This document shows positions 3-41,657 of a stretch of DNA of 41,834 nucleotides, in pieces. The DNA is from Elusimicrobiota bacterium (GTDB taxonomy: Bacteria; Elusimicrobiota; Elusimicrobia; UBA1565; UBA9628): positions 1-41,834 of the forward strand of contig JACQPJ010000060.1 of the NCBI GenBank assembly GCA_016207605.1, given 5' to 3'. Position numbers and translations under genes: made by a program. The notes below the pieces were generated by a model. That model was not told where the DNA came from, made no database searches, and saw only the letters and a list, made by a program, of their open reading frames with translations. Every line of letters begins with the position of its first letter. Positions within the stretch are counted from its first letter, which is position 1.

Positions 3-1025
3 CTTCATGTCGTCTCCGCCGGTTCGCTCCTCGAAGTGCGGATGAAGACCGAAGGCTGGTCGTTCCCGGTCGGCCGCGTGGAGTTCCTCTACCTCTACCC
101 GGCATCGTTCGACGAATTCATCCGCGCGCGGGGGGAGGGCGTCCTGCTGGAAGAGCTGCTGGAAATGCGGGTGGGGCGGGAAACTCCGCCGCCGCTCCAC
201 GACAGACTGACTGAGCTCCTTTTGGACTATATGATCGTCGGAGGGATGCCCGAGGCCGTGGCCCAATACATCGCCTCCGGCAGCCTTGCGGCCGCGAGGC
301 GCTGCCACGAAACCCTTTCCTCTTCCTTCAAAGAGGACTTCGGGAAGTACGCAAGAGGGGCCGAGGCCGCGCATCTGAAATCCGTCTGGGACCGGGTCCC
401 CTTCGAAGCGGGCAGCCGGATCAACTATGCGCGCCTAGCCGGAGAGCAGGGAGGCTCGCGCGAGGTTTCCAAGGCGTTTGACATCCTGCATGAGGCGATG
501 CTGGTCGAGAGGATATTTCCCACGACGCGGACCGCGCCGCCCTTGGTGAGGAAGCCAAAGAGCGCCCCGAAAACCCAATTTCTGGACATAGGCCTGTGCA
601 CCCATGCCCTGCGCTTGACGCGGGACCAGCTCCGCGACAGGTTCGTTTCATCAGGAATCAGCGGCGGGCTCGCCGAGGCGCTTGCCGGACAGGATCTGCT
701 CGCGGGCAGCTCGCGTCAAAGGGGGCCGCTCTTTTTCTGGGTCCGTGATGAGAATAACGCTCGCGCGGAACTGGATTTTCTCATTCAGGCCGGCGATCGC
801 ATCCTACCGGTCGAGGTGAAATCGGGCAGCCACGGATCGCTCAAGTCCCTCCACCAGTTCCTGCGCAGAAGCGGCACGGACGTCGGGACCCGGATTTACG
901 GCGGACCCTTGCTGCTCGAGCGCCGCTCCGTCATCCTGCCCGATGGCGCGAAGCTGAACTACAAGCTCCTGTCCGTGCCCTTTTATCTCGCGTTCAGACT
1001 GCTCGACCTCTGCGCGGTCCTTTGA
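3..1025 (+). CDS. DUF4143-type AAA ATPase, 5' end outside window
   Basis: This is the C-terminal part of a DUF4143 ATPase; the reading frame is open to the window edge, so the N-terminal Walker A region is missing. The first visible residues (SAGSLLEVR, then FPVGRVEFLYLYPASF) match the stretch that follows the ATPase core in this family. The C-terminal third holds a nuclease-like pattern, RAELDFLI followed by LPVEVKSGS, as in PD-(D/E)XK folds. Family members are usually stand-alone ATPases of unknown role, often compared with toxin-antitoxin or defence genes. A GTG at 36 is an internal codon, not the real start. The gene converges on lptD with only a dispersed repeat between them. A second, complete member lies at 22551-23696. 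Confidence 0.85.
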   Translation, partial: LHVVSAGSLLEVRMKTEGWSFPVGRVEFLYLYPASFDEFIRARGEGVLLEELLEMRVGRETPPPLHDRLTELLLDYMIVGGMPEAVAQYIASGSLAAARRCHETLSSSFKEDFGKYARGAEAAHLKSVWDRVPFEAGSRINYARLAGEQGGSREVSKAFDILHEAMLVERIFPTTRTAPPLVRKPKSAPKTQFLDIGLCTHALRLTRDQLRDRFVSSGISGGLAEALAGQDLLAGSSRQRGPLFFWVRDENNARAELDFLIQAGDRILPVEVKSGSHGSLKSLHQFLRRSGTDVGTRIYGGPLLLERRSVILPDGAKLNYKLLSVPFYLAFRLLDLCAVL

Positions 1026-4067: not shown

Positions 4068-5323
4068 GGGCGCCTCCCCGCGGCGGCCAGGGCCGCCCCG
4101 GCCAGGTACAAGGAACCGGCGCAGACCGCGACGGCCGCAGCCCCCCGCTCGCGGCGCCAGGCGGCGACGGCGCAGGCGGCGTCGCGCTCCACCGTCACCC
4201 GCGCCCCCGGCGCGGCGCGGCGCACCGCCGCGGCCAGCTCCAGGGGGTCGAGCGCGCGCGGGCTGGGCGGCGCGACGGCGACGACCTCGCGCAGGTGCGC
4301 CGACAACGGCGCCAGGATCCCGGAGGCGTCCTTGTCGCGCAGGAGGCCAAGAATCCAGCGCGCGGGCCGGCGCGACCAGGGCGAGTCCGCCCAGGTCTCA
4401 GCCAGCGCCCGCGCCGCCTCGGGGTTGTGGCCCCCGTCCACGATGAGCGTCCGGGAGCCCAGGCGCAAGGGCTGGAAGCGGGCCGGCCAGCGCACCGAGG
4501 CCAGACCCCGCCGCCACGCGGCAACGGGGACGTCCAGGCCGGAGACCTTGACGGCCGCGGCCGCCAAGGCGACGTTGCGGCGCTGGCGCCGCCCCAGGAG
4601 GGACAGCCGGAAGGTCCGTCCCGAGGGCGCGCGCAGGAGCTGGACTCCGCGCCTCCAATCCGCGCCCGCGGCCGCCCAGGGACGGCGCACGACCCGGGGC
4701 GCGGGATGGGCGCGGCGCACCGCGGCCATGGCCGCGGGCGGCAGCGCGGCGACCACGGCGGGGCGGCCGGGCTTGAGGATGCCGGCCTTCTGGGCGGCGA
4801 TGGCTCCCAGGGAACGGCCCAGGAAGGCCTGGTGGTCGTGGTCCACGGAGGTGATGACGGCCGCCAGCGGCTCCTCGACCACGTTGGTGGCGTCCAGGCG
4901 GCCGCCCAGCCCGGTCTCCAGGACGGCGACGTCGCAGCGGCGCTCGGCGAAGTGCTGGAAGGCGACGGAGGTCAGCAGCTCGAAGTAGGTGAGGCGCCCC
5001 GTCGGGTCCGCGCCCAGAGCCCGCGTCATCAGGCGCGCGAAGTCCGGCCGCGGGATGGGACGCCCATCCACGCGGATGCGCTCGCGGACGTCGCGCAGGT
5101 GCGGGGAGGTGTAAAGCCCGACCCGCCGGCCCGAGGCGCGCAGGACCGCGTCGAGCACGGCGCAGGTCGAGCCCTTGCCGTTGGTCCCGGCGACGTGGAA
5201 GGCGGGCACCCGGCGGTCCGGGCGGCCGAGGCGCGCGAGGTGGCGGCGCACGCGCGCCAGGCCCAGCTCGATGCGCGTCTCCTGCCGGGCCTCCAGGGCC
5301 TCCAGGGCTTGCGCGAAGGTCAT
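4064..5323 (-). CDS. folC: Folylpolyglutamate / dihydrofolate synthase
   Basis: FolC adds glutamate to folates, and in many bacteria also makes dihydrofolate from dihydropteroate. The 419-residue protein shows the Mur-ligase-type P-loop FHVAGTNGKGSTCAVL, followed by GLYTSPHLRDVRERI, then AVLETGLGGRLDATNVV, ITSVDHDHQAFLG and IAAQKAGILKPG. The C-terminal domain has LIVDGGHNPEAAR. The ATG at 5323 overlaps the murA stop (ATGA); the longer open frame upstream is only a shadow of murA. The gene lies in the murA-folC-ROK-lptD operon. Confidence 0.93.
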   Translation of the reverse strand: MTFAQALEALEARQETRIELGLARVRRHLARLGRPDRRVPAFHVAGTNGKGSTCAVLDAVLRASGRRVGLYTSPHLRDVRERIRVDGRPIPRPDFARLMTRALGADPTGRLTYFELLTSVAFQHFAERRCDVAVLETGLGGRLDATNVVEEPLAAVITSVDHDHQAFLGRSLGAIAAQKAGILKPGRPAVVAALPPAAMAAVRRAHPAPRVVRRPWAAAGADWRRGVQLLRAPSGRTFRLSLLGRRQRRNVALAAAAVKVSGLDVPVAAWRRGLASVRWPARFQPLRLGSRTLIVDGGHNPEAARALAETWADSPWSRRPARWILGLLRDKDASGILAPLSAHLREVVAVAPPSPRALDPLELAAAVRRAAPGARVTVERDAACAVAAWRRERGAAAVAVCAGSLYLAGAALAAAGRRP

Positions 5324-6573
5324 TTGAGGCGCGCGACGCGGGCGCCGACCCGGGACAGCTTGCCCTCGACGTCCTCGTAGCCGCGGTCGACGTGGTAGAC
5401 GCGCTGGATCACGGTGCGCCCGCGCGCGGCCAGCGCCGCCACCAGCAGGGCCGCGCCCGCGCGGATGTCGGAAGCCATGACGGGCGCTCCGGAGAGCTGC
5501 TCCACGCCGGACACGGCCGCGGCCGCGCCCGAGACTGAAATCCGGGCCCCCAGGCGCGCCAGCTCGGCGGCGTGGAGGAAGCGGTTCTCGAAGACGTCCT
5601 CGCGGACCCGGGCGGCGCCCGACGACAGCGCCATGAGCGCCATCCACGGCGCCTGCAGGTCGGTCGGGAAACCGGGATAGGGCGCGGTGCGCATCGAGAC
5701 GGGCTGGGGGCGGCCGTCCATGGCGATCTCGATCCAGCCGCGCCCGAAGCGAATCCTTGCGCCCGCCCGGCGCAGGGCCGCGATCACCGCGGTCAAATGG
5801 CCCGCCTCGGCGTTCTTAAGGCGCAGGCGCCCGCGCGCGGCCGCGCAGGCGATGAGGTAGGTGCCGGCCTCGACGCGGTCCGGGATCACGCGGTGGCGCG
5901 CGCCCTTCAGGCGCAGGCGCCCCTCGATGGTCACGGCCGAGGTTCCCGCGCCCTCGACCCTCGCGCCAAGGCGGACGAGGAACGCGGCCAAATCTGCGAT
6001 CTCCGGCTCGCGCGCGGCGTTGCGGATCGTCGTGCGGCCCGGCGTCGCCGCGGCGGCCAGCATCAGGTTCTCGGTCGCGCCGACGCTGGGAAAGCGCAGG
6101 CGCAGCGCGCCCGGCGCCAGGCGCGGCGCGCTCAAGATGATGTCGCCCTCGTCGGCGATGCGCCGCGCGCCCATGGCCTCAAAGCCCTGGAGGTGGATGT
6201 CGATGGGGCGCAGGCCGATCGCGCAGCCTCCCGGAATCGGCACGCGCACCAGGCCGAAGCGCGCGAGCAAGGGCCCGGCCACCAGCACCGAGGCGCGCAT
6301 CTGCTGGACGATGTCGTAGGGCGCCTGCGTCTTGAGCGAACCCGCGGCCGTAACGCGCACGGATGCGCCGCCCACGCGCACGCGCTTGCCCAGGCTCTCG
6401 AGCAGGCGCACGGTGGTCTTGATGTCGCGCAGCCCCGCCGGGACGTTGTCGACGACGCAGGGCTCGTCGGTGAGCAAGGTCGCCACGAGGATGGGCAGAG
6501 CCGCGTTCTTGGAGCCGCTGACCGCGATGGTCCCCTCCAGAGGCCGCCCCCCCTCGATGGTCAATCGGTCCAT
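5320..6573 (-). CDS. murA: UDP-GlcNAc 1-carboxyvinyltransferase MurA
   Basis: MurA transfers enolpyruvate from PEP to UDP-N-acetylglucosamine, the first committed step of peptidoglycan synthesis in the cytoplasm. At 417 residues it has the standard family length. The N-terminus carries GSKNAALPILVATLL. The PEP-binding loop PGGCAIGLRPIDIHL contains the catalytic Cys at about residue 117, so fosfomycin sensitivity would be expected. YPGFPTDLQAPWMAL is another family signature. It heads the operon, with 120 bp between it and the upstream Mrr gene. I could not identify a convincing promoter there. Confidence 0.95.
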   Translation of the reverse strand: MDRLTIEGGRPLEGTIAVSGSKNAALPILVATLLTDEPCVVDNVPAGLRDIKTTVRLLESLGKRVRVGGASVRVTAAGSLKTQAPYDIVQQMRASVLVAGPLLARFGLVRVPIPGGCAIGLRPIDIHLQGFEAMGARRIADEGDIILSAPRLAPGALRLRFPSVGATENLMLAAAATPGRTTIRNAAREPEIADLAAFLVRLGARVEGAGTSAVTIEGRLRLKGARHRVIPDRVEAGTYLIACAAARGRLRLKNAEAGHLTAVIAALRRAGARIRFGRGWIEIAMDGRPQPVSMRTAPYPGFPTDLQAPWMALMALSSGAARVREDVFENRFLHAAELARLGARISVSGAAAAVSGVEQLSGAPVMASDIRAGAALLVAALAARGRTVIQRVYHVDRGYEDVEGKLSRVGARVARLK

Positions 6574-6693: not shown

Positions 6694-7602
6694 CTACTCC
6701 TCGGCAAAATAATCGAGGTCCACCTTTTTTACGTCGAATGACGCCACCGAAATCACCCCGATGTTATTATCAATCATGAACCGCGCCAATTCTTCGCCGT
6801 CGATCAGCACAATTTTCATATTGATCTTGGCCGCATATTCACGCGCCGAGTCGTGAAACTCCGCAGTCGTAATGAAGATTCCTTTATTTGCGCGCTGGCC
6901 CTGGAGCGCCCCTGCAAACTTCTGAATCTCGACACGCCCCACGGGAGCCTTCCACCGCTTTGCCTGGATAAAAATGGTGTCGAGACCGAGGCGATCCTCC
7001 TTGATGATCCCATCAATGCCTTCATCTCCGCTCTTCCCTATGGCTTGGCCGGCGTCTTTTCTACTTCCGCCGTAGCCCATCTTGACCAAAAGTTCGACGA
7101 CGATCTTTTCGAAAAGGGCAGGCGGACTTGTCTTAAGTTGCTGGAGGAGATCGCTGGCCAAGCTCGCGCGCAGATTCTGGTGTGCGGCTTCGAGCGCTTC
7201 CTCAGGAGTCTGGACCTCCGAGTCAATGCCGGTTTCCAGCGGCTTAGTCTTGGCATGCTTGATTGCCCGCCAATCCCGATATTCGGGAAACTGATCAAGA
7301 AACTTCATGTCGATCCGTTTGGGATTTTCCTTGAGAACTTCTTGTCCGCGATCGGTTATCTTAAAATAACCGCGGCGAGTCGCTTCCACCAAAGCGGCTT
7401 TTTTTAGGAACGTCTTTGCCCAACCGACTCTGTTGTCAAAAATCTCATCAACATCGCTGGGGAGGCGCACCCTTCTTTCCTCGGCCGACAGGGCAAAGCC
7501 GTCGGCCAGCTTATCAATCGCTTCCAAGTAGCGATGTTCCTGCCCATCACCAGCAAGCTTCAGAAGCGGCAACATGATTGACTGGAAATCTGGGATTGCC
7601 AT
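6694..7602 (-). CDS. Mrr-type restriction endonuclease
   Basis: Mrr nucleases cut modified or foreign DNA. The 302-residue protein has an N-terminal winged-helix-like region (about 1-100, with GYFKITDRGQEVL) and a C-terminal Mrr catalytic domain. The PD-(D/E)XK-like residues are E165/E170 in FEKIVVELL, D197 in GDEGIDGII and Q213-A-K215 in IFIQAKRW. The ATG at 7602 starts MAIPDFQSIML, the usual Mrr N-terminus; the longer frame runs into the neighbouring gene. Only 7 nt separate it from the DUF4276 gene, so it is the last gene of a three-gene cassette. Its GC content is visibly lower than that of murA and prmC, suggesting transfer. Whether it needs methylated DNA is not visible. Confidence 0.88.
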   Translation of the reverse strand: MAIPDFQSIMLPLLKLAGDGQEHRYLEAIDKLADGFALSAEERRVRLPSDVDEIFDNRVGWAKTFLKKAALVEATRRGYFKITDRGQEVLKENPKRIDMKFLDQFPEYRDWRAIKHAKTKPLETGIDSEVQTPEEALEAAHQNLRASLASDLLQQLKTSPPALFEKIVVELLVKMGYGGSRKDAGQAIGKSGDEGIDGIIKEDRLGLDTIFIQAKRWKAPVGRVEIQKFAGALQGQRANKGIFITTAEFHDSAREYAAKINMKIVLIDGEELARFMIDNNIGVISVASFDVKKVDLDYFAEE

Positions 7603-7609
7603 TGATCCT

Positions 7610-8245
7610 CTACTGCGCCCCGGTACCCTGCCATTTTGACGGCGGCCAAGCTGGAAGCGTCTGCTGAAGCTGCGACAGAGATTCTCCGAGCGCCTTGACC
7701 AGTTTGCGAAAAGAGCGACTGCGGTGATGCGCCTGCCCCATGTCAAAAGCGGCGCTCATTGCGGGCTGGTCGAGCGTTTCCGAGTAGGCCCGGCGCTCCG
7801 GCATGAACTCTTCGAGTGCTCCCTTGGCGTCGCGCTTTGATTCGGGGTTGTCGGGAGAGGTTGCGACGTCGCTGATGCCGCATTTCCCCCGCAAGGATTC
7901 AACGGCGGATAGAAACCATGTCTCGTATTCACGATATGCGATTACGACATCGCAGGGAACCGTTCCCGCGGCCCCGCGCGCCCAGGCGCGTGCCTTTTCG
8001 GCGACCTCCTTGGGGCAATCGTCCTCGCCGTCGAAAAGAATTACCACGGCAGCGCAATCGGGCTGCAAAAGCGCAAGCTTCACCGCCGTCTCGACAGCTT
8101 CCTTGCTACGGAATTGCGCCTGAGTCCGGCGGATGGGCCTGCCCACTTCCACTCGATGGCACTGGGCTTCCGCCAACAACCGCCGCAGCAAAATGGGGAC
8201 AGCCTGCACCTCGCCGTGCCCCTCAACGATAGGATAAATCTTCAC
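7610..8245 (-). CDS. DUF4276 TOPRIM-like protein
   Basis: DUF4276 proteins are small TOPRIM-like proteins often encoded beside AAA ATPases in defence loci. This 211-residue protein begins MKIYPIVEGHGEVQAVPILL, with a TOPRIM-type Glu at residue 8. It continues with VVILFDGEDDCP (acidic residues about 72-76), the second metal-binding motif. AYREYETWFLSAVESLRG is typical of the family. Its ATG overlaps the stop of the ATPase gene (ATGA), so the two products are probably made in fixed ratio and may form one complex, as in OLD-type nucleases where ATPase and TOPRIM are fused. Nuclease activity is inferred from family comparison, not shown. Confidence 0.82.
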   Translation of the reverse strand: MKIYPIVEGHGEVQAVPILLRRLLAEAQCHRVEVGRPIRRTQAQFRSKEAVETAVKLALLQPDCAAVVILFDGEDDCPKEVAEKARAWARGAAGTVPCDVVIAYREYETWFLSAVESLRGKCGISDVATSPDNPESKRDAKGALEEFMPERRAYSETLDQPAMSAAFDMGQAHHRSRSFRKLVKALGESLSQLQQTLPAWPPSKWQGTGAQ

Positions 8246-9444
8246 GCCAAATTCTCGAACAAATTCCCTTGGCGTAAGTCTTCATCGTCGGAGAAGAGTT
8301 CCTCGGCATTCAGGGCATTGGAGCGTAGAAGTTCGCCCGCCCCCATTAAATGATCGCTCATCGCCTTCCGGGCGGCCCGCGACGGCATCAACGCATGGGA
8401 AGCTCCCTCCTGCCAGGTGACAACACGCAAGTTGCTGTCGCGAATCCATTTCGCGTCCAAAAGTTCCGGGCTGTGCGTGGTAACGATGACTTGCATGGAT
8501 TTGGATGCCTGGCGGATCAGATCAAGAATAGCGCCCAGGGCTCCTGGGTGAATGGTGGCCTCGGGCTCTTCGATGACTAATAGACTCGGACTTGGTTTTT
8601 GGAAAACGGCCAGAATAATTCCCAGGGATCGGAGCGTGCCGTCCGACATGTTGAACGCATCGAAGGTCAGATTTTTATTTTTATCGGAGCCCCACTCTTG
8701 AGAAAACTTCATGGATAGTTTATTCCCATGCTTTTCGGCAACGACCGATTTCGTGGCGGGAACGATGGTCTCAAGAATGTTGTTGATGGCTTTTTTCATC
8801 TCCGCCGATTCCTCCCCGCGAGACAACTCTTGTAGCACGCTCGCGGCGTTTCCTCCGTCGGTTCGTAGCGCCACGCCGCTGTCCGGATCCTGCATTCCGC
8901 GCAGTTTGGCCGGCTCGATCGAGTACACCCGCATCGAACCGAGAATGCGAACAATCGGCGCAAACCTTTCGTCGCCGCCAATCAGAGGCAGAGATAGCGC
9001 CGACGCTTCCAAAGCCGGCGTCAAGCCCTTCGCGTTGCTCTCCCAGGACGTTTCTTTTCGGTCAAACCACCAACGAGTTCCATCTGATTTGCGCACCAGA
9101 CATTGCTCCCGGGAGATCTGGTAGCCATAGTTTGCAAGGGCCCTGACCTCAAAAGCGAACCGCCCGCCGGCAACACCGTTGATTGGCCCGAACTCAAACG
9201 CCAGACCAAGATTGGGAGGATAACTTTTTCCCGAACTGCGGTTGCGCACTGCCGCGATGCCTCCCCGGCGGTCGAAGACCGCTTGAAGAGGAGATGCCAT
9301 TGCTTCGGAGACGAAGCTGAAAATATCGGCGAGATTGCTTTTTCCCGAGCCATTGCGTCCCACGACGAAAAGCGGATTATCGAATGTCAGTGTTGCCGAA
9401 GGAAAGCTACGGAAACGCTTGATGACCACTTTTATAATGGGCAT
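8242..9444 (-). CDS. AAA ATPase (AAA_21 / SMC-like) of a defence-like cassette
   Basis: This is an ABC/SMC-like ATPase of about 400 residues. The N-terminus MPIIKVVIKRFRSF leads into Walker A VVGRNGSGKSNLAD (about 27-40). The signature region is NMSDGTLRSLGIILAV, Walker B is SLLVIEEPEATIHPG, and VIVTTHSPELLD supplies the switch His. This is the layout of OLD/RecF-like ATPases in anti-phage systems. I chose the ATG at 9444 (MPIIK); an in-frame ATG at 9453 is the alternative. A TAAAAT box lies 7 nt before 9444, which would make the message leaderless. It is the first gene of the ATPase-DUF4276-Mrr cassette and follows a terminator at the end of prmC. Confidence 0.85.
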   Translation of the reverse strand: MPIIKVVIKRFRSFPSATLTFDNPLFVVGRNGSGKSNLADIFSFVSEAMASPLQAVFDRRGGIAAVRNRSSGKSYPPNLGLAFEFGPINGVAGGRFAFEVRALANYGYQISREQCLVRKSDGTRWWFDRKETSWESNAKGLTPALEASALSLPLIGGDERFAPIVRILGSMRVYSIEPAKLRGMQDPDSGVALRTDGGNAASVLQELSRGEESAEMKKAINNILETIVPATKSVVAEKHGNKLSMKFSQEWGSDKNKNLTFDAFNMSDGTLRSLGIILAVFQKPSPSLLVIEEPEATIHPGALGAILDLIRQASKSMQVIVTTHSPELLDAKWIRDSNLRVVTWQEGASHALMPSRAARKAMSDHLMGAGELLRSNALNAEELFSDDEDLRQGNLFENLA

Positions 9445-9475
9445 GTTCCTCATTTTACGCCCCCATCCCCAAGCT

Positions 9476-9519
9476 AAAAAAACAGAAGCCGCCAATTCAG
9501 TCTATCAAAAACCGGCGGC
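9476..9519 (-). terminator. Intrinsic terminator after prmC
   Basis: On the minus strand, arms at 9510-9519 and 9488-9497 pair over 10 bp (two G-T wobbles) around a 12-nt loop. TTCTG and then seven T (9482-9476) follow. The stem overlaps the prmC stop codon. It separates the rpmE-prfA-prmC unit from the defence-like cassette. Confidence 0.7.
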
Positions 9520-10371
9520 CGGCACTTTTGCGACGGCGATGCGCTCGAGGCCCTGGGCGTCCTTCCGGACTTGGACGGCCTCCAGGCCCGCGCGGCGCAG
9601 GAGTTCCGCGGCGGCCGACCCCTGGTCGGCGCCGATTTCCAGGGCGATCCAGCCGCCGGGCCTGAGCCGGCGCGGCGCTTGGGCGGCAAGGGCGCGGATC
9701 GCGTCCAGGCCGTCCCGGCCTCCGTCGAGAGCCAGGCGCGGCTCCTGGAGCACCTCCGCCTCCAGGCCGCCGATCGCGTCGGAGGGGACGTAGGGCGGGT
9801 TGGAGATCAGCAGGTCGGCCCACGGGCGCGGGTCCGACCGGACCGCGAACAAATCTTCGCGCACGAAGCGCACGCGCCCGACCACATGGTGGGCGACGGC
9901 GTTGCGCTCGGCCAGCGCCAGCGCCTTGACGCTGACGTCGGTGGCAAAGACGGCGGCCTGGGCAATCCGGCGGGCCAGCGCAATCGCGATGCAGCCGGAG
10001 CCCGTGCCGATCTCAAGAATCCTCGGCGGGGCGGCGCCGAGGGAGCGAACCAGCCGCTCTCCCTCCAGGACCAGCTCCTCGGTCTCCGGCCGCGGGATCA
10101 GGACATCCGGCGTCACCTCCAGGTTGAGGTCGAGAAAGGGCTGGCGGCCGAGGATGTAGGCGAGAGGACGGCGTCGGCCGCGCGCCTTGACCCAGTTCCA
10201 GAAGCAGCGGCCCTCCCGGACGCCAAGCTCCCGGGCCGGCTGGGCTAGAACGCCGCCGCGGCCCAGGTCCAGGGTCTCGGCCAGCAGGAACTCGGCGCTC
10301 GCCGACGCCTCCGGAACCTCGCGCTCCTCCAGGAAGGCCCGGGCCTTTTCGAGCCAGGCCGCGACGGTCAT
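9505..10371 (-). CDS. prmC: Release factor glutamine methyltransferase PrmC
   Basis: PrmC (HemK) methylates the Gln of the GGQ motif in release factors RF1 and RF2. The 288-residue protein has the N-terminal helical substrate-binding domain ([32 protein letters not shown]), then [11 protein letters not shown], the SAM-binding [16 protein letters not shown], and the catalytic [11 protein letters not shown]. Its ATG overlaps the stop of prfA, its substrate gene (ATGA), a widespread arrangement. Confidence 0.95.
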
Positions 10372-11969: not shown

Positions 11970-12626
11970 CTACTGCCGTCGGGACTCAATCCGCGCGATC
12001 CGGACTTCTTGGAAAGCCCAGGCGCGCTTATTATCCTCCACCGCCCCAACGATGCGATCCATCACGCGCAAAAGATGACTGGATTGAGATTTTATCGCCT
12101 GGAGAATCTCCGTCTTCATATCCGCCATATTGCCCGTCATGCGGGCAAAACCGACATTGAGGCGCTGGAGATTGTCGTCCATGCGATCGAACCGCTTGTC
12201 GTGCGCGTCCAAGCGAGCAGACAAACGATTTTCGACCTTGCACAAATCCTGCTTGATCGCATAGGCGTGATGCTTCAGCACGCCCACGTCCTGCTTAAGC
12301 ACCCCCACATCCTGCTTGAGCACCCCCACGTCCTGCTTAAGCACGCCCACATCCTGCTTGAGCACCCCCACGTCCTGCTTGAGCACGCCCATGTCCTGCT
12401 TGAGCACGCCCACATCCTGCTTGAGCACGCCCACGTCCTGCTTGAGCACCCCCACGTCCTGCTTGAGCACGCCCACGTCCTGCTTGAGCACCCCCACGTC
12501 CTGCTTGAGCACGCCCACGTCCTGCTTGAGGACAGATACGTCCTGCTTTACGACGGACAAGTCTTCCTTGACCGCTCCAACGTCACCCTTCGTGGCCGGC
12601 ATTCCCGCGTTCATCTTGGGGTCCAT
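11970..12626 (-). CDS. Heptad-repeat coiled-coil protein
   Basis: A 218-residue protein with no recognised enzymatic domain. After about 20 residues it enters a run of seven-residue repeats (LKQDVGV, 12 nearly identical copies plus degenerate flanks). This is an ideal heptad pattern for a parallel coiled coil. The C-terminal part (KVENRLSARLDAHDKRFDRM, then LNVGFARMTGNMADMKTEIL) continues as irregular coiled coil with a short basic end. There is no signal peptide or membrane segment. The ATG at 12626 has a very strong ribosome site, GGGAGGAGG, just upstream. It diverges from the secreted HExxH protein gene. It could be a scaffold or a length-determining rod; its function is unknown. Confidence 0.75.
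   Translation of the reverse strand: MDPKMNAGMPATKGDVGAVKEDLSVVKQDVSVLKQDVGVLKQDVGVLKQDVGVLKQDVGVLKQDVGVLKQDVGVLKQDMGVLKQDVGVLKQDVGVLKQDVGVLKQDVGVLKQDVGVLKHHAYAIKQDLCKVENRLSARLDAHDKRFDRMDDNLQRLNVGFARMTGNMADMKTEILQAIKSQSSHLLRVMDRIVGAVEDNKRAWAFQEVRIARIESRRQ
12279..12530 (-). repeat. Twelve 21-bp tandem repeats inside the coiled-coil gene
   Basis: Twelve head-to-tail 21-bp units encode LKQDVGV on the minus strand. Units differ almost only at third codon positions (GGC/GGG, GAC/GAT, CTC/CTT). The single replacement is one GTG-to-ATG (Val to Met). There are no spacers, so this is not a CRISPR array. Confidence 0.95.
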
Positions 12627-12716
12627 TATACCTCCTCCCGGCCGGCCGCAAACAAGAGGCCGGCCCTTATATACGCGAAGGGGGTGCATTTAGTTCCATG
12701 AAAATCGGCGATGATT

Positions 12717-22525: not shown

Positions 22526-22554
22526 ATGATAGCAGGCCCTTCGCGGCGTGTCAA
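22526..22554 (-). promoter_or_regulatory. Sigma-70 promoter of the trxA operon
   Basis: On the minus strand, TTGACA (22549-22554), a 17-bp spacer and the extended -10 TGCTATCAT (hexamer at 22526-22531) lie 41 nt before the trxA ATG. The -35 overlaps the stop codon of the upstream DUF4143 gene. Confidence 0.85.
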
Positions 22555-23696
22555 CCTTTCGCAACGTCAAGCTGAAGGGCTTGAGCCAGAGGAATCGCTT
22601 CGATGCGATTAGTCATCGCGAACCGATGTGTCCCCGGATACACCACCCACAGGCGCCGAAGCTTTAGATCCTCCAGGGCGATGTGCATGGATTTCGTGAC
22701 GCTTGGCGCCTCGCTCGCTTTGAATTCAAACCCCCAGCGCATGCCGTCACGCATGATCAATAAATCCAATTCGGCTCCGGCATGGGTCCCCCAAAAATAA
22801 ACATGCCGATCCGGGACCCGCCGGAGCGCCTGCTCCAGGGCAAATCCCTCCCAAGACGCGCCGAATTTGGGATGGGCGCAAAGACTTTCCTTGGTTTGGA
22901 GGCTCATGAGCGAATGGAAAAGCCCCGAATCCCGAATATAGACCTTGGGAGATTTGACCAGCCGCTTGCCCAGGTTTTCGTGCCAAGGCCGCAGCTGCCG
23001 AACCATAAAAGCGCCGGTCAGGATATCGAGGTAGTGCTGCGTGGTCGTATGCGCCGTCCCTAAGGAAGAGGCGATTTCGGACGCGTTCCAAGTCTGTCCA
23101 TGGTAGTGGGCAAGCATGCTCCAAAATCGCCTCAGCGTCGCCGCGGGCACGCGGATGCCCCATTGAGGGATATCGCGCTCCAAAAAAGTCTTCAGGAAAT
23201 CTTCCCGCCACTCGAAGCTCTTGGCGCCGCTGGCGGCCAGATAGGAGGATGGGAAGCCTCCGCGCAGCCAGAGCCGGTCGAGATGAGGCGCTTCGATCAG
23301 ATCGAATCCCCCCATGTCGATGAAGTGCACCCGCCCCGCCAGGGATTCCGAAGAATGCCGGAGAAGATCGGGCGAGGCGCTCCCAAGAATCAGGAAGGAC
23401 GCCCGCCGTGGCCGCCGGTCCGCCAAGACCCGCAAGGTTTCCAGCAGGCCGGGCTGCTTCTGGACTTCGTCCAAGATAATCAAGCCCCGAAGATCCCCGA
23501 GCGCGCGAACCGGATCCTGCAGGCGGGCAAGGTCCTGACGGTTCTCGAGGTCGAAGAACGACCCCTTGACCCGACGAAATAATTCCCGAGCCAGCGTGGT
23601 TTTGCCGCACTGCCGGGGCCCCAGAAGAGCCGTGACGGGATGATCCTTCACGCTGCGGCGAATCCTTTGAAGAAGCGCGGGTCGCCTGATGTGCAC
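22551..23696 (-). CDS. DUF4143-type AAA ATPase
   Basis: A complete 381-residue member of the AAA_14/DUF4143 ATPases. It shows Walker A VTALLGPRQCGKTTLAREL, Walker B LRGLIILDEVQKQPGLL, sensor FLILGSASPDLLRHSSES, and the DUF4143 part with LWLRGGFPSSYLA and ETLLERDIPQ-like FLERDIPQWGIR. The C-terminus has a nuclease-like pattern, AGAELDLLIMRDG followed by WGFEFKASEAP. I prefer the GTG at 23696, since upstream codons (TTG at 23750) run through promoter-like AT-rich DNA. It stands alone and is flanked by a repeat copy. Its function is unknown; it is a paralogue of the partial gene at the left edge. Confidence 0.87.
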   Translation of the reverse strand: MHIRRPALLQRIRRSVKDHPVTALLGPRQCGKTTLARELFRRVKGSFFDLENRQDLARLQDPVRALGDLRGLIILDEVQKQPGLLETLRVLADRRPRRASFLILGSASPDLLRHSSESLAGRVHFIDMGGFDLIEAPHLDRLWLRGGFPSSYLAASGAKSFEWREDFLKTFLERDIPQWGIRVPAATLRRFWSMLAHYHGQTWNASEIASSLGTAHTTTQHYLDILTGAFMVRQLRPWHENLGKRLVKSPKVYIRDSGLFHSLMSLQTKESLCAHPKFGASWEGFALEQALRRVPDRHVYFWGTHAGAELDLLIMRDGMRWGFEFKASEAPSVTKSMHIALEDLKLRRLWVVYPGTHRFAMTNRIEAIPLAQALQLDVAKG

Positions 23697-23746
23697 GACT
23701 GATTCTAGTATATTGAGCGATTGCCCATCAAATATCAAGGTGCAGC

Positions 23747-23863
23747 TCAATCGTAAGGAACCCCATTGGCCGCCCAGTAGTCATTAAACCACCTCGACGC
23801 GGCGCCCGCCACGTCGGCCCCAAAACGCCGCGCGAACAGAAGCGCCGACAGAGCGGCGCGCAC
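23747..23863 (-). pseudogene. Short ORF, possible gene remnant
   Basis: A 38-residue frame from the GTG at 23863, reading RAALSALLFARRFGAD and then SRWFNDYWAANGVPYD before TGA. The aromatic-rich end looks like real protein C-terminus rather than random high-GC translation. The frame emerges directly from repeat copy C, so it may be the tail of a gene lost by deletion. It could also be a small gene or chance. No family recognised. Confidence 0.3.
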
Positions 23864-40602: not shown

Positions 40603-40998
40603 GTGAACTCGCTGTCGCATTGGCTCGCCCGCGCTGACGAACTCGGCGCCCAGGGCCTCTATTTTGAAGCGCATGAGGAGTTGGAAACTCCGTGGCGGGC
40701 GGCCGTGGGGATGGAAAGACTCGCGCTGCAGGGATTGATCCAGGTCGCGGCCGGGCTGCACCGACTGCGCCTCAATCCAGACAAACCTGAAGGCGCTTTC
40801 TACCTGTTGGACCGCGGACGCGCCAAACTGAGAGCCTCGCGGGGCCTTTTCGATTCCGTCGCGCTGGCCGCGCTCGAGCGCCGGCTGAAGGCGATCCGCG
40901 CCGCCGGCAAGGCCCCGAAGGGCCTGCGCTTCGGGCTCATAGCATCCAGGCCGCGATCCTTCGGACGCGGCACAGATGCGCTGCGGAAAGGCTCATAG
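40603..40998 (+). CDS. DUF309 family protein
   Basis: A 131-residue member of DUF309, small helical proteins of unknown function. The family signature is clear: GLYFEAHEELETPWR (H24, E25, E28), then ALQGLIQVAAGLHRLR and GAFYLLDRGRAKL. The last ~18 residues after KGLRFGL and the TAG stop come from repeat copy D, so the original C-terminus was probably shorter. The GTG start is set by the extended -10 box 6 nt upstream. It diverges from smc. Confidence 0.88.
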   Translation: MNSLSHWLARADELGAQGLYFEAHEELETPWRAAVGMERLALQGLIQVAAGLHRLRLNPDKPEGAFYLLDRGRAKLRASRGLFDSVALAALERRLKAIRAAGKAPKGLRFGLIASRPRSFGRGTDALRKGS

Positions 40999-41061
40999 CA
41001 TCTAGGCCTCGACCCTTCGGGCTCGGCACAGATGCGTCGAGGCAGGGCTCATAGCATCTAG
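40937..41061 (+). repeat. Dispersed ~56-bp repeat, tandem copies D and E
   Basis: Two full units with a 56-bp period (from about 40949 and 41005) follow the tail of a third (ATAGCATCCAGG). Copy E has the ends GCCTCGAC and GTCGAGGC, which pair perfectly. Copy D supplies the end and stop codon of the DUF309 gene; the final CTAG of copy E supplies the lexA stop. Confidence 0.85.
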
Positions 41062-41657
41062 AGCTTCCGAATGAGGGACAGCACCTTGCCGGCGATGTGC
41101 CCCGCGCCGATGGGGAAGGGCTCGTAGCGGGGATTGTCCGGCACCAGGAGCATGCCCGCGGGCTTGACCCGCAGGCGCTTGACGGTCGCCTCGCCCTCGT
41201 CGAAGCGCACGACCACGACGTCGTTGTTGGACGCCGTCTCCTGCCAGCGCACGACCACGGTGTCACCCTCGCAGAGCGTGGACTCCATGGAGTCTCCCTT
41301 GACCCGAAGCGCGAAGAGTCCCGACGCGTCGCCGCGGTCCACGACCGCGGGCACGTGCCCCAGGGCCTCGGCGTAGGCGCCCTCGGAGGGGCCCGCGGGC
41401 ACCCGGCCCAGGATGGGCACCAGGGCGACACGCTCCTCGGCGACGAGCTGGGCGGCGCGGGAGCGGCCGCGGGCCTCTTCCAAAAGCCCCTTCTCGCGCA
41501 GCTTGTCCAAATGATACTGGACCGTGTCCGGCGAGCTCACCCCCGCCAAGCGCGCCAGCTCGCGCACCGTCGGCGGACACCCGTGGTCCGCCGTGAAATT
41601 GCACACCAGGTCCAAGATCTGCCTCTGTCTCGACGTCAGCTCCTCCGCGTTTGCCAT
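41058..41657 (-). CDS. lexA: SOS repressor LexA
   Basis: LexA represses DNA-damage genes and cleaves itself when RecA is activated. The 199-residue protein has the winged helix (LTSRQRQILDLVCNF, PPTVRELARLAGVSSPDTVQ) and the S24 peptidase domain. The cleavage site Ala88-Gly89 lies in GRVPAGPSEG, the catalytic Ser123 in VKGDSMEST and the Lys160 in EGEATVKRL. These have the same relative spacing as in E. coli LexA. An apparent LexA box in its promoter indicates autoregulation. Its stop codon lies in repeat copy E. Confidence 0.96.
   Translation of the reverse strand: MANAEELTSRQRQILDLVCNFTADHGCPPTVRELARLAGVSSPDTVQYHLDKLREKGLLEEARGRSRAAQLVAEERVALVPILGRVPAGPSEGAYAEALGHVPAVVDRGDASGLFALRVKGDSMESTLCEGDTVVVRWQETASNNDVVVVRFDEGEATVKRLRVKPAGMLLVPDNPRYEPFPIGAGHIAGKVLSLIRKL

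What the first reader, a model, noticed from the sequence alone, without database searches (positions are those of the whole stretch)
6694..9444. Three-gene ATPase / DUF4276 / Mrr cassette inserted between prmC and murA
Seen: an OLD/RecF-like ATPase, a TOPRIM-like DUF4276 protein and an Mrr nuclease are packed head to tail (ATGA overlap, then 7 nt) with lower GC than both flanks, after an intrinsic terminator. Known: ATPase plus TOPRIM pairs (OLD, AbiL-like) and Mrr enzymes are separate anti-phage types. Inference: here the three act as one system, with Mrr as a second effector or sensor of modified DNA. murA, prfA and prmC commonly neighbour one another in bacteria, so the cassette looks like an insertion.
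Basis: partly seen in the sequence, partly recalled or inferred. Interest (0 to 1): 0.72.

Follow-up and report, generated by a model that had tools for sequence, protein, structure and literature searches.

The report
ATPase–DUF4276 defence pair beside Mrr
A small insertion between two housekeeping genes of an uncultured Elusimicrobia-type bacterium carries a known kind of two-gene candidate phage-defence module next to an ordinary, unrelated type IV restriction enzyme; in 66 other loci with the module the restriction enzyme is never beside it, so the three genes are probably not one system.

Summary
On the minus strand lie an OLD-type ABC ATPase (9444-8242), a DUF4276 protein (8245-7610) and an Mrr endonuclease (7602-6694). 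They are packed head to tail and have about 55% G+C between ~73% flanks. prmC and murA are 8-220 nt apart in 24 of 29 relatives, so the cassette is an insertion in this genome. Correction: the first overlap is GTGA, not ATGA.

The 'one three-gene system' reading is not supported. The first two genes are a known pair, PADLOC's HEC-01A/B. In 66 other HEC-01 loci from several phyla, no Mrr lies beside the pair (tblastn and a validated HMM). DNA homology to the nearest pair, in the same genus, runs from 12 nt before the ATPase start to the DUF4276 stop codon, leaving Mrr outside. Close relatives of this Mrr stand alone or next to type I restriction genes.

Most likely the cassette is two independent defence units sharing a transcript. 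One is a PARIS/OLD-like ATPase plus predicted Toprim nuclease; the other is a type IV restriction enzyme. The pair often sits inside type III R-M or DUF499 (Hma) loci, so it may be a backup module for restriction. That idea is open.

The parts
8242..9444 (-). HEC-01A: OLD-family ABC ATPase, 400 aa. Walker A GRNGSGKS, signature MSDGTLR, Walker B LLVIEEPE and H-loop TTHS are intact.
   Evidence: PDLC04178 E 4e-102; fold matches PtuA/Rad50/SMC; hhalign to P2 Old 97.9%
7610..8245 (-). HEC-01B: DUF4276 protein, 211 aa, GTG start overlapping the ATPase stop; predicted Toprim-like nuclease (E8 in VEGHGE, D72-x-E74, E106/E108)
   Evidence: PDLC04196 E 4e-62; pLDDT 93.5; best PDB matches are OLD Toprim domains, E 2e-3
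6694..7602 (-). Mrr-type (type IV) restriction endonuclease, 302 aa: winged-helix Mrr_N plus PD-(D/E)XK Mrr_cat; D197 and Q213-x-K215 invariant in 18 homologues
   Evidence: (PDLC03657 E 5e-85)
7611..9456 (-). extent of DNA homology (82%) to the nearest HEC-01 pair in the same genus (L049): the module boundary, excluding Mrr
9477..9517 (-). possible intrinsic terminator at the end of prmC (weak)
9505..10371 (-). prmC, upstream flank of the insertion
5320..6573 (-). murA, downstream flank of the insertion

Best explanation
The cassette is a small defence insertion made of two independent units that happen to share a transcript. Unit 1 is a HEC-01 pair: an OLD-type ABC ATPase plus a DUF4276 Toprim-like nuclease on a separate gene, the gene layout of PARIS (AriA/AriB). 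Inferred mechanism: the ATPase assembles as a dimer or oligomer and holds or gates the nuclease; a phage-made trigger changes the ATPase state, and the nuclease then cuts a nucleic acid and aborts infection. Unit 2 is a type IV Mrr enzyme: its winged-helix domain recognises modified or foreign DNA and its PD-(D/E)XK domain cuts it, without needing the pair. Shown: gene content, intact ATPase and Mrr motifs, conservation of the pair, absence of Mrr from other pair loci, and the insertion. Inferred: the defence role, the trigger, the nuclease substrate, and the independence of the two units in the cell.
For: The pair is conserved as a pair: DUF4276 follows the ATPase in 29 of 31 loci found with the ATPase; in the other two the contig ends inside the ATPase (L066) or no DUF4276 is detected (L070). 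Conversely, an ATPase hit lies beside DUF4276 in most loci found with the DUF4276 family. Mrr is absent from all 66 other pair loci, by tblastn and by an HMM that recovers even a divergent Mrr paralogue at 7e-25. DNA homology to the nearest pair ends at the DUF4276 stop codon. The same pair (88.5/84% identical) in the same genus is followed about 30 nt later by a DrmD-like SNF2 helicase instead. Mrr relatives in 12 other genomes of the phylum and on plasmids are solo or beside type I R-M genes. PADLOC already lists HEC-01A/B and mREase_IV as separate models. Literature: PARIS has ATPase and Toprim on separate genes (PMC10568477); OLD-ABC plus TOPRIM modules are recruited as backup effectors to BREX and DUF499 systems (PMC12839542); AriB Toprim cleaves tRNA after trigger sensing (PMC12409363).
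Against: No experiment shows that HEC-01 defends. The Toprim assignment of DUF4276 rests on motif placement and a weak fold match (E 2e-3, TM 0.36); profile comparison with the single P2 Old sequence found nothing. The 7-nt spacing means the three genes are probably co-expressed, which leaves room for a functional tie in this lineage. The genome is a 75%-complete draft assembly with no reads available for checking the junctions.
Confidence: 0.72

Rival explanations
1. One reading: the three genes form one defence system, with Mrr as a second effector or as the sensor of modified DNA for the ATPase/nuclease pair.
For: Tight head-to-tail packing with 4-nt overlap and 7-nt gap, shared low G+C, shared insertion. 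OLD-ABC ATPases paired with PD-(D/E)XK nucleases instead of Toprim are described (PMC12839542).
Against: 0 of 66 other pair loci have Mrr; the module boundary excludes Mrr; Mrr relatives live without the pair.
Confidence: 0.08
2. The pair is a restriction-guarding backup module (PARIS-like) that attaches to whatever restriction system is at hand; in this genome it has attached to a type IV Mrr. The tie is functional at the level of what is guarded, not a fixed three-gene system.
For: 8 of the 11 closest pair loci (73-89% identical ATPase) have a type III DNA methylase within 10 kb, often directly after DUF4276 inside the type III operon; others sit in DUF499/DUF1156 (Hma) loci or beside ZorD/DpdE-like helicases. 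PARIS senses the anti-restriction protein Ocr (PMC12839542).
Against: 19 of 31 loci show no such neighbour in the flanks held, so the pair often lives alone. No anti-restriction trigger is known for HEC-01, and Mrr is the partner only once.
Confidence: 0.17
3. The pair or Mrr is not defence but a housekeeping or mobile-element function, or the cassette is degenerate and silent.
For: No phage assay exists for HEC-01 in the literature searched, and no sigma-70-like promoter was found near it by a simple scan. An archaeal OLD-family ATPase has been reported to act in the cell cycle rather than in defence (PMC12796447).
Against: All reading frames and ATPase and Mrr motifs are intact. Patchy distribution (8 to 15 of 340-400 genomes per group) and repeated siting inside restriction loci are typical of defence genes. 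The promoter scan does not cover this phylum's promoters.
Confidence: 0.08

Closest known systems
HEC-01 (PADLOC-DB candidate system, HEC-01A + HEC-01B)
   Same: Both pair genes match best at high score and in the expected order (E 4e-102 and 4e-62).
   Different: No difference in the pair itself; here an Mrr gene follows, which belongs to a separate PADLOC model (mREase_IV) and is not found in 66 other loci.
PARIS (AriA ATPase + AriB Toprim, 'Class 4 OLD')
   Same: ABC ATPase and small Toprim-like nuclease on separate adjacent genes; ATPase of the same superfamily (AriA is among the profile hits).
   Different: AriB is DUF4435-type (recalled), HEC-01B is DUF4276; no detectable sequence relation to AriB (one search finds no Toprim chain); trigger and substrate unknown.
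OLD-family nucleases (P2 Old, GajA/Gabija)
   Same: ATPase core aligned to P2 Old with 97.9% probability; DUF4276 fold best matches OLD Toprim domains.
   Different: ATPase and nuclease are split over two genes; no GajB-type helicase in the cassette.
Septu (PtuA/PtuB)
   Same: PtuA is the best fold and profile match for the ATPase.
   Different: No HNH nuclease PtuB; DUF4276 takes the partner place.
Mrr-type type IV restriction endonucleases
   Same: Mrr_N winged helix + Mrr_cat, 302 aa, full-length matches 34-58% to plasmid-borne and E. coli copies.
   Different: Specificity for modified bases unknown.
OLD-ABC/TOPRIM backup modules of BREX and DUF499 (Hma) systems
   Same: HEC-01 pairs lie between DUF1156 methylase and DUF499 ATPase genes in L063 and L071.
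   Different: The window pair has no BREX or DUF499 gene next to it.

Membership tests
HEC-01 candidate defence pair (PADLOC) | HEC-01A ATPase and HEC-01B DUF4276 protein, adjacent, same strand | tested here: met
   linkage in 29 of 31 related loci
HEC-01 candidate defence pair (PADLOC) | protects against phage | not testable with these tools
   no assay found in the paper library
OLD-family ABC ATPase | Walker A, signature, Walker B, H-loop; OLD-type core | tested here: met
Toprim nuclease | acidic motif after strand 1 and DxD-like motif after the third strand | tested here: met
   E8 >90% and D72 >90% conserved, mostly D/E at 74, at strand ends in the model
Toprim nuclease | significant fold similarity to a solved Toprim domain | tested here: inconclusive
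   best PDB matches are OLD Toprim domains but E 2e-3, TM 0.36; no sequence match
PARIS | AriB-type nuclease partner (DUF4435, recalled) | tested here: not met
   partner is DUF4276
Septu | HNH nuclease PtuB partner | tested here: not met
   partner is DUF4276
Mrr type IV restriction endonuclease | Mrr_N + Mrr_cat with intact D...QxK site | tested here: met
Mrr type IV restriction endonuclease | cleaves modified DNA | not testable with these tools
   needs assay
proposed three-gene ATPase/DUF4276/Mrr system | recurrent linkage of all three genes | tested here: not met
   0 of 66 other pair loci have Mrr

The most novel reading that the evidence does not exclude
HEC-01 pairs are interchangeable guard modules of restriction: the ATPase senses loss or inhibition of a neighbouring restriction enzyme (type III, DUF499/Hma, or here type IV Mrr) and releases a DUF4276 nuclease. 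This cassette would then be the smallest known guard-plus-restriction unit.
Probability: 0.14. Interest if true: 0.55.

Novelty: new member of a known kind. Interest (0 to 1): 0.27.

Why it matters
It stops a tempting but wrong new 'three-gene system' from being named. It also shows where the real unit ends: a portable ATPase-DUF4276 pair that turns up alone, inside type III and DUF499 restriction loci, and here beside an Mrr. If the pair guards restriction enzymes, that would extend the PARIS idea to a different nuclease family.

Tried and rejected
Three-gene system: rejected on co-occurrence and module boundary. Hot spot at prmC-murA: not supported; the five relatives without adjacent prmC-murA differ in unrelated ways. 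Plasmid or phage carriage of the pair: no plasmid match at 1e-20, only two distant phage records, no relative in viral contigs. Sequence proof of Toprim by comparison with P2 Old: nothing. Paper search for DUF4276 or HEC-01 as a defence name: nothing relevant.

Full report
What is there. The minus strand of the window reads prfA, prmC, then an ATPase (9444-8242), a DUF4276 protein (8245-7610), an Mrr endonuclease (7602-6694), then murA and folC. G+C drops to 0.54-0.59 from flanks of 0.70-0.78. The terminator between prmC and the cassette is possible but weak.

Domains. Pfam gives AAA_21, DUF4276, and Mrr_N + Mrr_cat. PADLOC gives HEC-01A (4e-102), HEC-01B (4e-62) and mREase_IV (5e-85). The ATPase keeps all four nucleotide-binding motifs, aligns with P2 Old (97.9%), and folds like PtuA, Rad50 and SMC heads. 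The DUF4276 model is confident (pLDDT 93.5); its conserved acids sit at strand ends as in Toprim domains, and its best PDB matches are OLD Toprim domains, but below firm significance. Mrr keeps D197 and QxK in all 18 homologues aligned.

Insertion. prmC was found in 55 of 58 genomes searched, and loci of the best matches were fetched. In 24 of 29 of these relatives, murA follows prmC with a gap of 8-220 nt. In the other five no murA was found downstream in the sequence held (G010, G012, G017, G036), or a different ~1-kb ORF lies between (G025). No fetched relative has the cassette there, so it is an insertion in this lineage.

Is it one system? A scan of one genome per species for the ATPase gave 31 loci in Elusimicrobia, Verrucomicrobia, Planctomycetota, Acidobacteria, Betaproteobacteria, Latescibacterota and others. 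DUF4276 follows the ATPase in 29 of them; Mrr is in none, with flanks of up to 10 kb. HEC-01B searches of the own phylum, of the phyla of two other carriers (a Verrucomicrobia and a Planctomycetota genome) and of one order (that of a Rhodocyclales carrier) added 35 further loci, again without Mrr in 1.5-kb flanks. The count of 66 is my own tally after removing loci fetched twice. An 18-sequence Mrr HMM, which recovers a divergent paralogue at 7e-25 in the controls, finds nothing at E up to 10 in any pair locus. Mrr_cat does occur somewhere in 19 of the 31 carrier genomes, so its absence next to the pair is not for lack of the domain.

Module boundary. Against the nearest pair, in the same genus (L049, 82% DNA identity), homology runs from 9456, 12 nt before the ATPase start, to 7611, at the DUF4276 stop codon. 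In L049 the next gene is a DrmD-like SNF2 helicase, not Mrr. The relatives of this Mrr in 12 other genomes of the phylum and on the plasmids inspected lie alone or next to type I R-M genes, never next to the pair. In the phylum sample the pair and this Mrr share a genome only here.

What the pair keeps company with. Eight of the eleven closest pair loci hold a type III DNA methylase, in several of them directly after DUF4276 and inside an operon with a DrmD-like helicase and a type III res subunit. Others sit between DUF1156 methylase and DUF499 ATPase (Hma) genes or beside ZorD/DpdE-like helicases. Nineteen of 31 show none of these neighbours in the sequence held. A 2026 survey describes OLD-ABC + TOPRIM modules recruited as backup effectors in BREX and DUF499 systems (PMC12839542), and PARIS is the known case of ATPase and Toprim on separate genes (PMC10568477; PMC12409363).

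Mechanism. The best-supported account is two defence units on one transcript. The pair is a split OLD: an ATPase that gates a Toprim-like nuclease until a phage trigger appears (inferred from PARIS). Mrr cuts modified incoming DNA on its own (inferred from its family). Nothing here tests the trigger, the substrate or the defence phenotype.

Verdict. The cassette is real and well described, but it is a chance or loosely selected neighbourhood of two known kinds. The guard-of-restriction idea is the one open point of interest.

Noticed in passing
L052:6550-16998, L053:6971-17246, L058, L051, L056, L049, L057: A recurrent locus: DrmD-like SNF2 helicase, HEC-01A, HEC-01B, type III methylase, type III res subunit (with variations: the helicase is a remnant in L056 and absent from L057, which has a KAP-like NTPase), in Verrucomicrobia, Betaproteobacteria and Elusimicrobia; the pair sits inside the type III R-M operon.
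   Followed up: partly
L034:4889-6536: A DUF6088 protein and an AbiEii-type nucleotidyltransferase side by side about 3 kb downstream of prmC in another genome of the order (G036), where murA is not next to prmC.
   Followed up: partly
window 11970-12689 (-): A 239-aa protein with about 13 near-perfect seven-residue repeats (VLKQDVG; 21-bp DNA repeat at 12271-12548), probably a coiled coil.
   Followed up: partly
window 36-1025 (+) and 22551-23750 (-): Two DUF4143 proteins (the second with an AAA_14 domain) in the same window.
   Followed up: no
window 40933-41061: A 56-bp tandem repeat (2.3 copies) at or beyond the 3' end of the lexA-like gene (41058-41657, -).
   Followed up: no
L084:493-2418: Two Mrr-type genes in tandem (a divergent Mrr_cat protein 12 nt before a full Mrr) in another genome of the family.
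   Followed up: no
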